From NCBI GenBank assembly GCA_003133325.1, contig PKXA01000128.1, positions 1 through 64,000 of the forward strand: a stretch of DNA of 64,000 nt, written 5' to 3'. Position numbers and translations under genes: made by a program. Below the pieces are notes generated by a model. It made no database searches and was not told the DNA's origin. It saw nothing but the letters and a program-made list of their open reading frames with translations. Position 1 is the stretch's first letter, and the number at the start of each line of letters is the position of its first letter. The stretch is from Acidimicrobiaceae bacterium (GTDB taxonomy: Bacteria > Actinomycetota > Acidimicrobiia > Acidimicrobiales > RAAP-2). This document shows positions 53,595-57,374 of the stretch, piece by piece.

Positions 53595-53963
53595 TCAGAT
53601 GAGCGTGCCGAGTGCCAGCCCGGCGATGGCGGCACCCAGCCCAGCCACCAGGCTGACCAGCACGTTCGTCACCGCGGCGGCGGGCGCATCGCTCCCGAAC
53701 AGCCGAAAGGTGTCGTAGGTGAACGTCGAGAACGTGGTGTAGGCGCCGATCAGACCCGTGCCGAACACCGTCACCCAGTTGGTGGCCAGGCCGTGATGGA
53801 GAGCCGACCCGGTGAGGAAGCCCAGAACCAGCGAGCCGGTCACATTGATCAACAGGGTCCCGTAGGGAAAGTCGGATTCGACCTTCCCCTGGACGAACCG
53901 GTCGATCAGATACCGGAGGACCGCTCCGGTTCCCCCGGCGATCATCAGACCGCCGATGATCAC
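53595..53963 (-). CDS. crcB: fluoride channel subunit CrcB/Fluc (second copy)
   Basis: A 122-residue four-helix protein: GGTGAVLRYLIDRFVQG, PYGTLLINVTGSLVLGFLTG and GLIGAYTTFSTFTYDTFRLF, the Fluc signature with the Phe/Thr track. Last gene of a three-gene operon; GTG overlaps the DUF190 stop. With the first copy it likely forms a heterodimeric fluoride channel. Confidence 0.94.
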   Translation of the reverse strand: MIIGGLMIAGGTGAVLRYLIDRFVQGKVESDFPYGTLLINVTGSLVLGFLTGSALHHGLATNWVTVFGTGLIGAYTTFSTFTYDTFRLFGSDAPAAAVTNVLVSLVAGLGAAIAGLALGTLI

Positions 53964-54322
53964 GTGGTGGCCCCCGGATCGGGGGCCGGCCCGGAGCCGT
54001 AGGAGACCACCTGAATCGGCTCCCGCACCACGAGACCGCTCACCTGCAGGTCACGGATCTGGGGCAGAAAGGCGTCGATCTTCTCGGTGGTGTCGATGAT
54101 CTCCACCATGATGGGCAGGTCGTCGCTCAGACTGAGGATACGGGTGGTGTGGATGTGATTGTTGGCTCCGTACCCTTCAAAGCCCTTCCACGCCGAAGCA
54201 CCGGCCATGCCGGCGGCATGGGCCCGGTGGATGATCTCCGCGTGCATGGCCACGTGATGATGGCGGTCTGACTCGCCGAGATAGATGGTCAGGCGTTCGG
54301 CCGCTCCGGAGAGGGTGGTCAT
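53960..54322 (-). CDS. DUF190 protein of the fluoride operon
   Basis: A 120-residue PII-like protein: RLTIYLGESDRHHHVAMHAE, HAAGMAGASAWKGFEGYG, IHTTRILSLSDDLPIMVEII and QVSGLVVREPIQVV. DUF190 proteins often stand between two crcB genes. They have a PII/GlnB-like fold and may modulate the channel; this is family knowledge and inference. Four-base overlaps on both sides show tight coupling. Confidence 0.9.
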   Translation of the reverse strand: MTTLSGAAERLTIYLGESDRHHHVAMHAEIIHRAHAAGMAGASAWKGFEGYGANNHIHTTRILSLSDDLPIMVEIIDTTEKIDAFLPQIRDLQVSGLVVREPIQVVSYGSGPAPDPGATT

Positions 54323-54825
54323 GGGGTTGTCCTTTGTTCGGTTTCGGGTTCGGGGCGGGCGTCGAATTCTGAGTCGGGATCGGTACTCAGCAGACCTGAC
54401 GTGTCCCCGCGCCGGCTGCGGGCCAAAAGGACACCGAGTCCCACCGCCGCCACCCCGGCCACCACCGAGACGAACAGGTAGACGACGCCCAGAGTCGGAT
54501 AGCCGTCCTGAGTCCGCCGGACGGCTTCGACCATCAAGGTGGAGAAGGTGGTGAACCCGCCGCAGAACCCGATGGCGGCAAATGGCAGGGCGTAGCGGGT
54601 TGGTGGCCACCGTTCGGCCACCACCGTGATGATCACTCCCAGCAGTAGGGAGCCGACCACGTTGACGGCGAATGTGGCCCACGGGAACCCGTTGGCGGAG
54701 ACGACCACCGCCTGGCTCACCTCGTAGCGGGCCAGGGTGCCGAGGGCACCGCCGCCGGCGATGACCACGATGCGGAGTACGGGCGCGGAGCCCGGTCCGG
54801 TGGCTCGCTTCGTCGGTGAGGGCAC
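54319..54825 (-). CDS. crcB: fluoride channel subunit CrcB/Fluc (first copy)
   Basis: A 168-residue four-helix protein: AGGGALGTLARYEVSQAVVV, PWATFAVNVVGSLLLGVIIT and GFCGGFTTFSTLMVEAVRRT. It has a polar C-terminal tail of about 30 residues. The GTG at 54825 is chosen because AAGGAG lies seven bases before it. An in-frame ATG at 54873 lies inside the fluoride riboswitch and would need the RNA to be coding, so it is rejected. Confidence 0.93.
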   Translation of the reverse strand: MPSPTKRATGPGSAPVLRIVVIAGGGALGTLARYEVSQAVVVSANGFPWATFAVNVVGSLLLGVIITVVAERWPPTRYALPFAAIGFCGGFTTFSTLMVEAVRRTQDGYPTLGVVYLFVSVVAGVAAVGLGVLLARSRRGDTSGLLSTDPDSEFDARPEPETEQRTTP

Positions 54826-54861
54826 AGACTCTCCTTCCGGTGTCACGACTCGCGGTGTTCC

Positions 54862-54913
54862 GGTAGGAGCCATCAGCCGTCACCGGCGGTTGGGGCGAGC
54901 TCCATCGCCTCGC
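54862..54913 (-). ncRNA. fluoride riboswitch (crcB motif)
   Basis: On the minus strand the RNA reads GGCGATGGAGCTCGCC, then AACCGCC, then GGCTGATGGCTCCTAC. These are the conserved blocks of the fluoride aptamer, including the two pseudoknot halves and the GCTGATGGCTCCTAC 3' block. It ends about 37 bases before the crcB start codon. Fluoride binding would switch on the crcB-DUF190-crcB operon, probably through access to the ribosome-binding site or readthrough. Its 5' edge touches the IS605 element end. Confidence 0.92.
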
Positions 54914-54919
54914 TCAGTG

Positions 54920-55090
54920 TGAACTACACCCCACCTGAAGGTGGGGGCTTCGTGAGCTAGTCCCGGTCATGCTGCGACCGTCCTCTGGCCCAGTCTGTTT
55001 TCCCGCTTCCCCGGCCCGTCCAACTTCAACGGTGCCTCAGTCCCGACCGGCGGCATTGCATCCGTTCGTTCCTCCAGTTCGTACCTGGAG
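54920..55090 (-). ncRNA. putative TnpB omega RNA (reRNA) at the right end
   Basis: In IS605 elements the guide RNA covers the 3' part of tnpB and the right-end hairpin and continues into flanking DNA as guide. Here the minus strand gives the hairpin CCCACC-TTCA-GGTGGG and then GTAGTTCAC at the edge. The guide would be the next bases, ACTGAGCGAGGCGATG, which are the start of the fluoride riboswitch. Length and 5' end are estimates. Confidence 0.55.
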
Positions 55091-56415
55091 CGGGCATCAT
55101 CCACAATTCCTGCGGACAGCGTGGGTACAAGGCCCCCACTCACGGCACGCATGAGGATGTTGCAGGCCGCATTGAAGTCGGCGTTACCGGTCCAGCCGCA
55201 GTCGGTGTCCCCACACACGAGCAATGCTTGGTTCTTGCGCTGTCCGGGTGTGGTGGACCCACATGTGTGACACGTCAGTGACGTGAACGGTGCTGGGACG
55301 GTGACGACGGCTCCTCCGTTATCAGCCATCTTGTATCTGGTGAGATCGAGCAATGTTCCCCAACCTTCGTTGAGGATGACCCGGTTGAGACCGGACTTGG
55401 CTGCGACGTTGGTGCCGGGTGCCTTCACACTCCCGGCCGCCGACTTGGTCATGTTCTTGATCCGGAGTGCCTCGAACACGGCCACGCTGTAACCGTCGGC
55501 GATCTTGCGGGAAGTCTGGTGGTGCCAGTCCTTGCGACGACGGGCGGCCTTGGCCTGCACAGAAGCGATGGCGTCGTAGGTCTTGCGCTCGTTGGCACCG
55601 ATCCTGCCCTTGCCCCGCCCATCGGAGCGGTCCCATCTGGCGTGGCGCTCCCGGGCACTCTGGCGCTCCAGATATCGGAGGTGGCGTTTCTCGCCGGGAG
55701 TCAGCCAGTCGGGATGGTTGAACTCAGTTCCATCTGATCCGGCCAGGGGGATGACCACGCCCCGGTCGAACCCGACGACCGGCCGGGACTCCACCGGGGA
55801 TCGCAGCTCCGGCTTCGGTAGTTCCACCCGCAGCGCCAGCGTCCAGCGTCCGTGGTCATTGGTGACACGAGCACCAGTAACTCTGGCTCCGACCGGAATC
55901 GGGCGGTGGTACCGGATGGTCACCTTTCCCACCTTGGGGACCTGGACGGTGGCGAACTTTTTGGAGACCCTGGTGATGTTCAGGTCTCGGGCCTGGGGGA
56001 TGTCGAACGACGGGCGATCCTTCAACCGACTGTGAAAGTTCGGCGCACCACCGACACCGGACCAGCACCGCTCCCACGTTTGCCAGTACCTCTTGGCAAC
56101 GGCTTTGCATGCTTGGGCGGGCAACTCTGCCAACCATGGGATGTCCGTGCGGGCTTGAGCCACCACAGCATCCAGATCGGACTTCTTCACCCGGCGCAGC
56201 GGACGACTGGACATCAACCACCACTGGTGGGTCATGTTCCACAGTGCCCGGTCGAGGTCGGTCATCCTACCCATCCCGGCGCCCAGTTCGACGGTCGGGT
56301 CCATGCGGTACAGCAACCCGCGACTGACCGACGGATGGGCAGCCTTCCACCGGGCAAGCTTCGCCGCCTTGGCTTTCCTGCTCCGCTCGGCGGGGCTGTT
56401 GGAGTCGCGCTTCAC
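54967..56415 (-). CDS. tnpB: RNA-guided nuclease TnpB (IS605 family)
   Basis: A 482-residue TnpB that seems intact. A basic N-terminus and REC/wedge region precede the RuvC domain. RuvC-I Asp is in VVGFDRGVVIPLAGSDG, RuvC-II Glu in VAVFEALRIKNMTKS, the zinc finger is CHTCGS with CGDTDCGWTG, and RuvC-III Asp is in GNADFNAACNIL. TnpB cuts DNA beside a TAM, guided by RNA from its own 3' end, and helps keep the element in place. GTG start. Transcription runs toward the crcB riboswitch. Confidence 0.93.
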   Translation of the reverse strand: MKRDSNSPAERSRKAKAAKLARWKAAHPSVSRGLLYRMDPTVELGAGMGRMTDLDRALWNMTHQWWLMSSRPLRRVKKSDLDAVVAQARTDIPWLAELPAQACKAVAKRYWQTWERCWSGVGGAPNFHSRLKDRPSFDIPQARDLNITRVSKKFATVQVPKVGKVTIRYHRPIPVGARVTGARVTNDHGRWTLALRVELPKPELRSPVESRPVVGFDRGVVIPLAGSDGTEFNHPDWLTPGEKRHLRYLERQSARERHARWDRSDGRGKGRIGANERKTYDAIASVQAKAARRRKDWHHQTSRKIADGYSVAVFEALRIKNMTKSAAGSVKAPGTNVAAKSGLNRVILNEGWGTLLDLTRYKMADNGGAVVTVPAPFTSLTCHTCGSTTPGQRKNQALLVCGDTDCGWTGNADFNAACNILMRAVSGGLVPTLSAGIVDDARSRYELEERTDAMPPVGTEAPLKLDGPGKRENRLGQRTVAA

Positions 56416-56510
56416 TACGCTCCAGTGTAGCGCCTGGTAGTATCGGTGTTATACCCATAGAGCCAGATATACGCCGAGGCAGACACGCTATTTGGGCTTG
56501 TCATGCCCAT

Positions 56511-56867
56511 TTGGTGTTTGTCACCAAGTACAGACGTGGGGTGTTCACTGGTGCCATGCTCACGACCTGCGAACGGACCATGCGTGAAACGTGTGACGAC
56601 TTCGGGGTCACCCTGGTGGAGTTCAACGGCGAGGACGATCACGTCCACCTGCTGATTGAGTTTCCTCCGACCGTGCAGCTCACTCGGCTGGTGAACTCGC
56701 TGAAGGGTGTGTCGTCCCGGATGTTGCGCCAGAGGCATCCGGTCCAAGTCAAGAAGTACCTGTGGGGGGACCACTTCTGGTCCCGCTCCTACTACGTCGG
56801 TACCGCTGGGGGTGCGCCGCTGAGCGTCATCGGCGAGTATGTCGAGAGCCAGCGACGGCCAGCCTGA
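56511..56867 (+). CDS. tnpA: Y1 (HUH) transposase TnpA of IS200/IS605
   Basis: A Y1 transposase that cuts and joins single-stranded DNA. The HUH motif is GEDDHVHLLIEF and the catalytic Tyr is in LSVIGEYVESQ. Family likeness continues upstream of the TTG at 56511 in the same frame (IEPDIRRGRHAIWACHAHL, from about 56457), but there no ATG, GTG or TTG is available; codons at the expected start are ATA. So either a rare start is used, or the original start was mutated and the gene is truncated. The coordinates give the part from the TTG. Confidence 0.8.
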   Translation: MVFVTKYRRGVFTGAMLTTCERTMRETCDDFGVTLVEFNGEDDHVHLLIEFPPTVQLTRLVNSLKGVSSRMLRQRHPVQVKKYLWGDHFWSRSYYVGTAGGAPLSVIGEYVESQRRPA

Positions 56868-56972
56868 CTCTGTGTGCGCCGGACAAGCGATTCACCTCCT
56901 GCCTGAAGGCGGGAGCACTCTCGCCAAAATCGGGTAGAGCGGCCATGTGTGGGCGGGTGGCAGGATGCGGAC

Positions 56973-57374
56973 ATGGAGACTCAGCTCATCGGGATGGACA
57001 CCTCTGGTCGCCAGGTGGTCGACCTGACCGGTGCAGTGTCGTCATTCTGTGAGGGTAAGGGAGACGGGCTGGTGCACGTGTTCGCCCCCCACGCCACCGC
57101 CGGGGTGGCCCTGATGGAGCTGGGGTCCGGGTCGGAGTCGGACCTGGTCGAGGCCATCGAACGCCTGCTGCCCCGGGACGACCGCTATCGGCACCGGCAC
57201 GGCGCCACTGGGCACGGAGCAGACCACGTCCTCCCGGTCTTCATCAGTCCGTCCATGGTGCTGCCGGTATTCGACGGCACCCTGCAGTTGGGGACATGGC
57301 AGAAGGTGGTGCTGGTGGACACCAACGAGGACAATCCCCATCGGACGGTGCGCCTCAGCTTCGTGTCCGGCTGA
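56973..57374 (+). CDS. yjbQ: YjbQ/UPF0047 family protein
   Basis: A 133-residue protein: GLVHVFAPHATAGVALMELG, AIERLLPRDDRYRHRH, TGHGADHVLPVFISPSMVLP, and GTWQKVVLVDTNEDNPHRTV. The conserved His/Glu/Asp set of UPF0047 is present. Some members show a weak thiamine phosphate synthase side activity; the true role is unresolved. The ATG at 56973 is the start closest to the conserved domain. Confidence 0.9.
   Translation: METQLIGMDTSGRQVVDLTGAVSSFCEGKGDGLVHVFAPHATAGVALMELGSGSESDLVEAIERLLPRDDRYRHRHGATGHGADHVLPVFISPSMVLPVFDGTLQLGTWQKVVLVDTNEDNPHRTVRLSFVSG

What the first reader, a model, noticed from the sequence alone, without database searches (positions are those of the whole stretch)
54862..55090. 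IS605 end lies on the fluoride riboswitch, so the TnpB guide RNA would target the riboswitch
The right end of the IS200/IS605 element stops at about 54919, only about six bases from the 5' edge of the crcB fluoride aptamer. TnpB guides are the bases that follow the element end, here the first bases of the riboswitch (ACTGAGCGAGGCGATG). The element is oriented so that tnpB and its guide RNA are transcribed toward crcB. The crcB operon may therefore now depend on element transcription, and TnpB would be programmed against the riboswitch allele without the insert. Sequence placement is seen directly; the functional link follows from known TnpB biology and is inferred.
Basis: partly seen in the sequence, partly recalled or inferred. 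Interest (0 to 1): 0.75.

Follow-up and report, generated by a model that had tools for sequence, protein, structure and literature searches.

The report
IS605 insertion in a fluoride-riboswitch promoter
A common jumping gene has landed exactly in the promoter of a fluoride-export operon, so its built-in RNA-guided cutter should now recognise the riboswitch leader of chromosomes that lack the insertion; a neat but essentially ordinary case of known TnpB biology.

Summary
The placement is real. A 2015-nt IS200/IS605 element (54919-56933; tnpA and tnpB divergent) ends at 54919, directly against the Rfam fluoride aptamer (54918-54857, 56.9 bits). Its ends were fixed in two ways. Related copies with unrelated flanks all end in GTTCAC. 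A congener (G004) has the uninterrupted site GGCCGCTCTAC^ACTGAGCGAGGCGATGG. There is no target duplication, and 2 nt are ambiguous. The likely target/TAM is TCTAC; other copies mostly show TCTAY. The predicted TnpB guide, ACTGAGCGAGGCGATG, perfectly matches the congener's empty allele behind that TAM. It has no TAM-plus-target match (up to 3 mismatches) elsewhere in the held genome.

New here: the insertion splits a -10 box (TAC^ACT). A TANNNT at this position occurs before 18 of 30 fluoride riboswitches in relatives, against a 0.5% background. The tnpB strand has no other TANNNT within 1.3 kb. crcB transcription therefore probably now comes from the tnpB side. The riboswitch looks translational: the aptamer's CUCC..CCGG pairs with the Shine-Dalgarno region. 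Fluoride gating could therefore survive on a chimeric omega-RNA/crcB transcript.

No transcription, cleavage or fluoride response was measured. TnpB targeting the empty site is generic to TnpB elements, so this is a new member of a known kind.

The parts
54919..56933 (-). IS200/IS605-type element, 2015 nt, left end at 56933, right end at 54919 (register ambiguous by 2 nt)
   Evidence: empty site in G004; conserved right ends of related copies
54967..56415 (-). tnpB, 482 aa; RuvC residues D217, E315, D413 align with D191/E278/D361 of ISDra2 TnpB (ISDra2 numbering from memory except D191); RuvC-III motif NADFN; zinc ribbon
56511..56867 (+). tnpA, Y1 transposase (HUH motif HVH); conserved frame extends upstream to about 56451 but without ATG/GTG/TTG
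54929..54947 (-). right-end subterminal hairpin CCCCCACC-TTCA-GGTGGGG
   Evidence: one A-U to G-C compensatory change in a G056 copy
56896..56915 (-). left-end subterminal hairpin CTCCCGCC-TTCA-GGCAGGAG
54919..55060 (-). predicted omega-RNA scaffold (3' end of tnpB plus right end); 5' boundary unknown
   Evidence: conserved across the stop codon in 6 copies; inferred from TnpB biology; fold not more stable than shuffles
54903..54918 (-). predicted 16-nt guide ACTGAGCGAGGCGATG
   Evidence: first 16 nt after the right end; identical in the empty allele of G004
56934..56938 (-). target/TAM TCTAC, left flank of the element
   Evidence: other copies TCTAC, TCTAT, and divergent TTCTC and TTTAC
56934..56936 (-). 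TAC, first half of the -10 hexamer TACACT split by the element
54916..54918 (-). ACT, second half of the split -10 hexamer; with the element end it now reads CACACT
54857..54918 (-). fluoride riboswitch aptamer RF01734
   Evidence: 56.9 bits
54860..54869 (-). anti-Shine-Dalgarno strand CTCCTACCGG (3' part of aptamer)
54831..54840 (-). CCGGAAGGAG, Shine-Dalgarno region complementary to 54860-54869
54319..54825 (-). crcB (first copy), start GTG 54825 behind AGGAG
53960..54322 (-). DUF190 gene
53595..53963 (-). crcB (second copy)
56424..56429 (-). TACACT, candidate -10 of tnpB just upstream of its GTG start
   Evidence: sequence only
56949..57374 (+). UPF0047/YjbQ-like gene, divergent from crcB, downstream of tnpA after the insertion

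Best explanation
An IS605-type element inserted, without target duplication, 3' of TCTAC in the divergent promoter region between a yjbQ-like gene and a fluoride-riboswitch crcB-DUF190-crcB operon. Shown by sequence: it cuts the hexamer TACACT, at the operon's -10 position, into TAC^ACT and places the riboswitch directly after the element's right end. Inferred: RNA polymerase reading tnpB continues through the right end into the riboswitch, so one transcript holds tnpB/omega-RNA, guide and crcB leader. TnpB takes the omega-RNA whose guide is the 16 or so nt after TTCAC. TnpB cleaves the element-free allele (TCTAC-ACTGAGCGAGGCGATG) that is left when TnpA excises the element, which retains or restores the insertion. 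The element's own junction reads TTCAC instead of the TAM and is spared. crcB stays fluoride-gated because the switch acts on ribosome access rather than on its own promoter or a terminator.
For: Aptamer and genes. Exact empty site in congener G004, and clean 2015-nt insertion by BLAST. Right ends of related copies all ...GTAGTTCAC, GCAGTTCAC or, in one diverged copy, GGTTCAC, with unrelated flanks. Left flanks of related copies mostly TCTAC/TCTAT. TANNNT 5-9 nt before P1 in 18 of 30 fluoride riboswitches, against a 0.5% background. No TANNNT on the tnpB strand between about 56264 and the riboswitch, and no sigma70-like site. Guide plus TAM perfect in G004, and no TAM-plus-target match with 3 or fewer mismatches in the host outside the junction itself, which has 2 mismatches, both in the TAM. 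RuvC triad intact by alignment to 8bf8. Anti-SD pairing beyond the SD core exceeds mismatched pairings in all but 2 of 2000 shuffles. Published: TnpB binds RNA from the right end plus about 16 nt of flank and is proposed to cut the TAM-bearing donor joint (PMC8612924); it processes its own mRNA at the 5' end and tolerates 3' extension (PMC10278001).
Against: No RNA, protein or cleavage data. The -10 is inferred from position only; the rebuilt hexamer CACACT keeps A-11 and T-7 and might retain activity. The TAM rests on few copies, with two divergent ones (TTCTC, TTTAC), and the register is ambiguous by 2 nt. The predicted omega-RNA fold is no more stable than shuffles. tnpA lacks a canonical start codon before its conserved N-terminus, so the element may no longer move. 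The anti-SD shuffle test does not correct for relatedness of sequences.
Confidence: 0.65

Rival explanations
1. Ordinary, functionally silent insertion: the IS landed in the promoter region, TnpB/omega-RNA is weakly or not expressed, and crcB is either switched off or driven from the rebuilt CACACT box.
For: Single copy in the host; tnpA without a canonical start; only one hexamer position changed (T-12 to C); no promoter consensus in the region.
Against: tnpB open with intact triad; crcB1, DUF190 and crcB2 remain open, with synonymous changes at least as common as or close to non-synonymous ones between congeners; right end and 3' non-coding stretch conserved across genomes.
Confidence: 0.28
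2. The element was co-opted: a TnpB-derived regulator (TldR-like) uses its guide to control the fluoride operon.
For: The guide overlaps the operon's promoter/leader; TldR proteins are known TnpB-derived RNA-guided transcription factors (PMC13418256 abstract).
Against: RuvC triad D217/E315/D413 intact; transposon ends and tnpA present; guide is the immediate flank; no TAM at the occupied site; no second target with TAM in the host; no transposon right end seen before the other riboswitches examined.
Confidence: 0.03
3. Assembly chimera: the junction between element and riboswitch is an artefact of a fragmented assembly.
For: The contig set is fragmented (133 contigs); the element is not found whole elsewhere.
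Against: Both junctions fit the empty site exactly and obey the end and target rules of related copies; flanks are about 95% identical to G004 on both sides; the element is single-copy in the host, so it is not a collapsing repeat.
Confidence: 0.04

Closest known systems
IS200/IS605 family, IS605 group (IS608, ISDra2)
   Same: Y1 tnpA plus tnpB, subterminal hairpins at both ends, insertion 3' of a short motif without duplication, guide taken from the right flank
   Different: target/TAM TCTAY rather than TTAC (IS608, from memory) or TTGAT (ISDra2, PMC8612924); sits in a riboswitch promoter
TnpB of the 'Derived' clade (RuvC-III NADXN) in PMC10278001
   Same: RuvC-III motif NADFN, zinc ribbon, right-end hairpin within 10 nt of the guide
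   Different: nearest solved homologue 9j09 only a partial match (E 1.9e-22); activity not tested
Translational fluoride riboswitch (for example Pseudomonas syringae, Burkholderia pseudomallei; PMC13273304)
   Same: crcB-motif aptamer upstream of fluoride exporters; no tailed terminator found; SD can pair with the aptamer's CUCC
   Different: here preceded by a transposon end instead of its own promoter

Membership tests
IS200/IS605 (IS605 group) | Y1 HUH transposase | tested here: met
   Pfam Y1_Tnp E 2.8e-39; start codon unclear
IS200/IS605 (IS605 group) | subterminal hairpins at both ends | tested here: met
   54929-54947 and 56896-56915
IS200/IS605 (IS605 group) | insertion 3' of a short target, no target duplication | tested here: met
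   empty site G004; 2-nt register ambiguity
IS200/IS605 (IS605 group) | active single-strand transposition | not testable with these tools
   needs an excision assay
TnpB RNA-guided nuclease | RuvC D-E-D triad and zinc ribbon | tested here: met
   D217, E315, D413; CHTC...CGDTDC
TnpB RNA-guided nuclease | omega-RNA ending in the flanking guide | not testable with these tools
   right end conserved through the non-coding part, no RNA data
TnpB RNA-guided nuclease | empty site = TAM + guide target | tested here: met
   TCTAC-ACTGAGCGAGGCGATG in G004; TAM by inference
TldR (TnpB-derived repressor) | loss of the RuvC active site and of mobility features | tested here: not met
   triad intact, ends and tnpA present
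Fluoride riboswitch RF01734 | aptamer sequence and structure, upstream of fluoride exporter | tested here: met
   56.9 bits, crcB/DUF190/crcB downstream
Fluoride riboswitch RF01734 | fluoride-dependent expression | not testable with these tools
   needs a reporter

The most novel reading that the evidence does not exclude
The guide and the fluoride aptamer share nucleotides (guide positions 10-16 are the 5' strand and loop of P1) on one chimeric transcript. Aptamer folding, and so fluoride, could affect guide availability, or omega-RNA maturation could consume crcB leader RNA. That would make TnpB targeting and fluoride export mutually dependent.
Probability: 0.05. Interest if true: 0.65.

Novelty: new member of a known kind. 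Interest (0 to 1): 0.34.

Why it matters
It is a clean natural case in which a TnpB element appears to have replaced a riboswitch's own promoter. The ends, empty allele, guide and likely TAM are all readable from sequence. It allows simple tests of whether riboswitch gating survives on an omega-RNA read-through transcript, and whether TnpB maturation and downstream gene expression compete for the same RNA. It also shows how an element with a TCTAY target can land inside a -10 box.

Tried and rejected
The genome-contig scan with the TnpB protein found no relative. A pattern scan found three contigs of one Acidimicrobiales MAG (DAIDHF01) and one Actinobacteria MAG (JAMDDE01). TldR-like co-option was rejected on the intact triad. 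Multiple riboswitch targets were rejected: the host has one fluoride riboswitch and no other TAM-plus-guide match. A stable omega-RNA fold was not supported by energy (z 0.42). No paper in the library was found that links TnpB and fluoride riboswitches (titles and abstracts judged). No structure was predicted, because sequence alignment already answered the catalytic-site question.

Full report
Observation. The window holds a full-length fluoride aptamer on the minus strand at 54918-54857 (RF01734, 56.9 bits). Behind it lie a crcB, a DUF190 gene and a second crcB. On the other side lies an IS605-type element with tnpB on the same strand as crcB and tnpA divergent. Related copies in G056 (DAIDHF01, an Acidimicrobiales MAG), G095 and G181 carry different right flanks but end GGGGGTAGTTCAC, GGGGGCAGTTCAC or, in one diverged copy, GGTTCAC. 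The right end is therefore base 54919, directly against the first position of the Rfam model and 9 nt before P1.

Empty site. The same-genus genome G004 has the locus without the element: GGCCGCTCTAC^ACTGAGCGAGGCGATGGAGC. BLAST of both flanks shows a clean insertion with two shared bases and about 95% identity on either side. Left flanks of related copies end GCTCTAC, TTCTAC, TTCTAT and ATCTAT, with more divergent TTCTC and TTTAC. TCTAY is thus the likely target and TAM. By the usual IS605 convention I place the cut after TCTAC; the sequence alone leaves 2 nt open.

Guide. By known TnpB biology the guide is the first 16 or so nt after the right end (PMC8612924), here ACTGAGCGAGGCGATG. It is identical in G004 behind TCTAC. 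In the host, TAM plus guide matches nothing else within 3 mismatches except its own junction, where the TAM is replaced by TTCAC. The target is therefore the insert-free allele of this locus. That is the normal retention role of TnpB (PMC8612924; gene-drive form in PMC11870625), not a special attack on riboswitches.

Promoter. In 18 of 30 fluoride riboswitches of the family and order, a TANNNT hexamer ends 5-9 nt before the anchor at P1, against 0.5% in upstream background. In G004 this hexamer is TACACT. The insertion splits it as TAC^ACT and leaves CACACT. On the tnpB strand the last TANNNT before the riboswitch starts at 56269, and a TACACT stands right upstream of tnpB. No sigma70-type site was found, and no tailed terminator was found on the tnpB strand between tnpB and crcB. 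Read-through from tnpB into crcB is therefore the simplest source of crcB RNA, but it is inferred.

Riboswitch output. Downstream of the aptamer, CUCC-UA-CCGG can pair with CCGG-AA-GGAG, the Shine-Dalgarno region of the crcB start GTG 54825. Across 27 relatives that could be parsed this pairing extends further than in mismatched pairings (observed 148 pairs, mean 122.4, sd 6.7, 2 of 2000 shuffles as high; related sequences not corrected for). Translational fluoride riboswitches are known (PMC13273304). Such a switch does not need its own promoter, so gating can persist on a longer transcript.

TnpB. Alignment to ISDra2 TnpB (8bf8) places D217, E315 and D413 on the catalytic D-E-D. The RuvC-III motif NADFN is that of 'Derived' TnpBs (PMC10278001). 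That paper shows 5' processing by TnpB, no 3' processing, and tolerance of 3' extension. A guide still attached to the riboswitch need not block activity. P1 begins at guide position 10, so the first nine guide bases are free of P1 pairing.

Population hint. In G001, another congener, the contig carrying the riboswitch ends exactly at the last base common to empty and occupied alleles, and the yjbQ contig ends about 21 nt before the insertion point. This fits a segregating insertion there but could be chance; element sequence was not found in that bin.

Verdict. All functional steps remain to be tested.

Noticed in passing
G001:C93 end (L003/L100) and G001:C212 end (L069/L101): Two contigs of a congener break at this very locus, one at the exact base where empty and occupied alleles diverge; possibly the insertion segregates in that sample.
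   Followed up: partly
56416-56511: The tnpA frame with the conserved N-terminus (DIRRGRHAIWACHAHLVFVTKYRR) has no ATG/GTG/TTG before TTG 56511; the transposase may use a rare start or be crippled. A related copy in G181 (L092) appears frame-shifted there.
   Followed up: partly
56424-56429 and the empty site of L004: The candidate -10 of tnpB (GCTACACTGGAGCG) resembles the split riboswitch promoter (TCTACACTGAGCG); probably coincidence.
   Followed up: no
56934-57374: The divergent insertion also puts the yjbQ-like gene downstream of tnpA, so both neighbours may receive element transcription.
   Followed up: no
L093/L098 (G095:C74:1-157): A left end of a related element matches on both strands around its hairpin, close to a contig end.
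   Followed up: no
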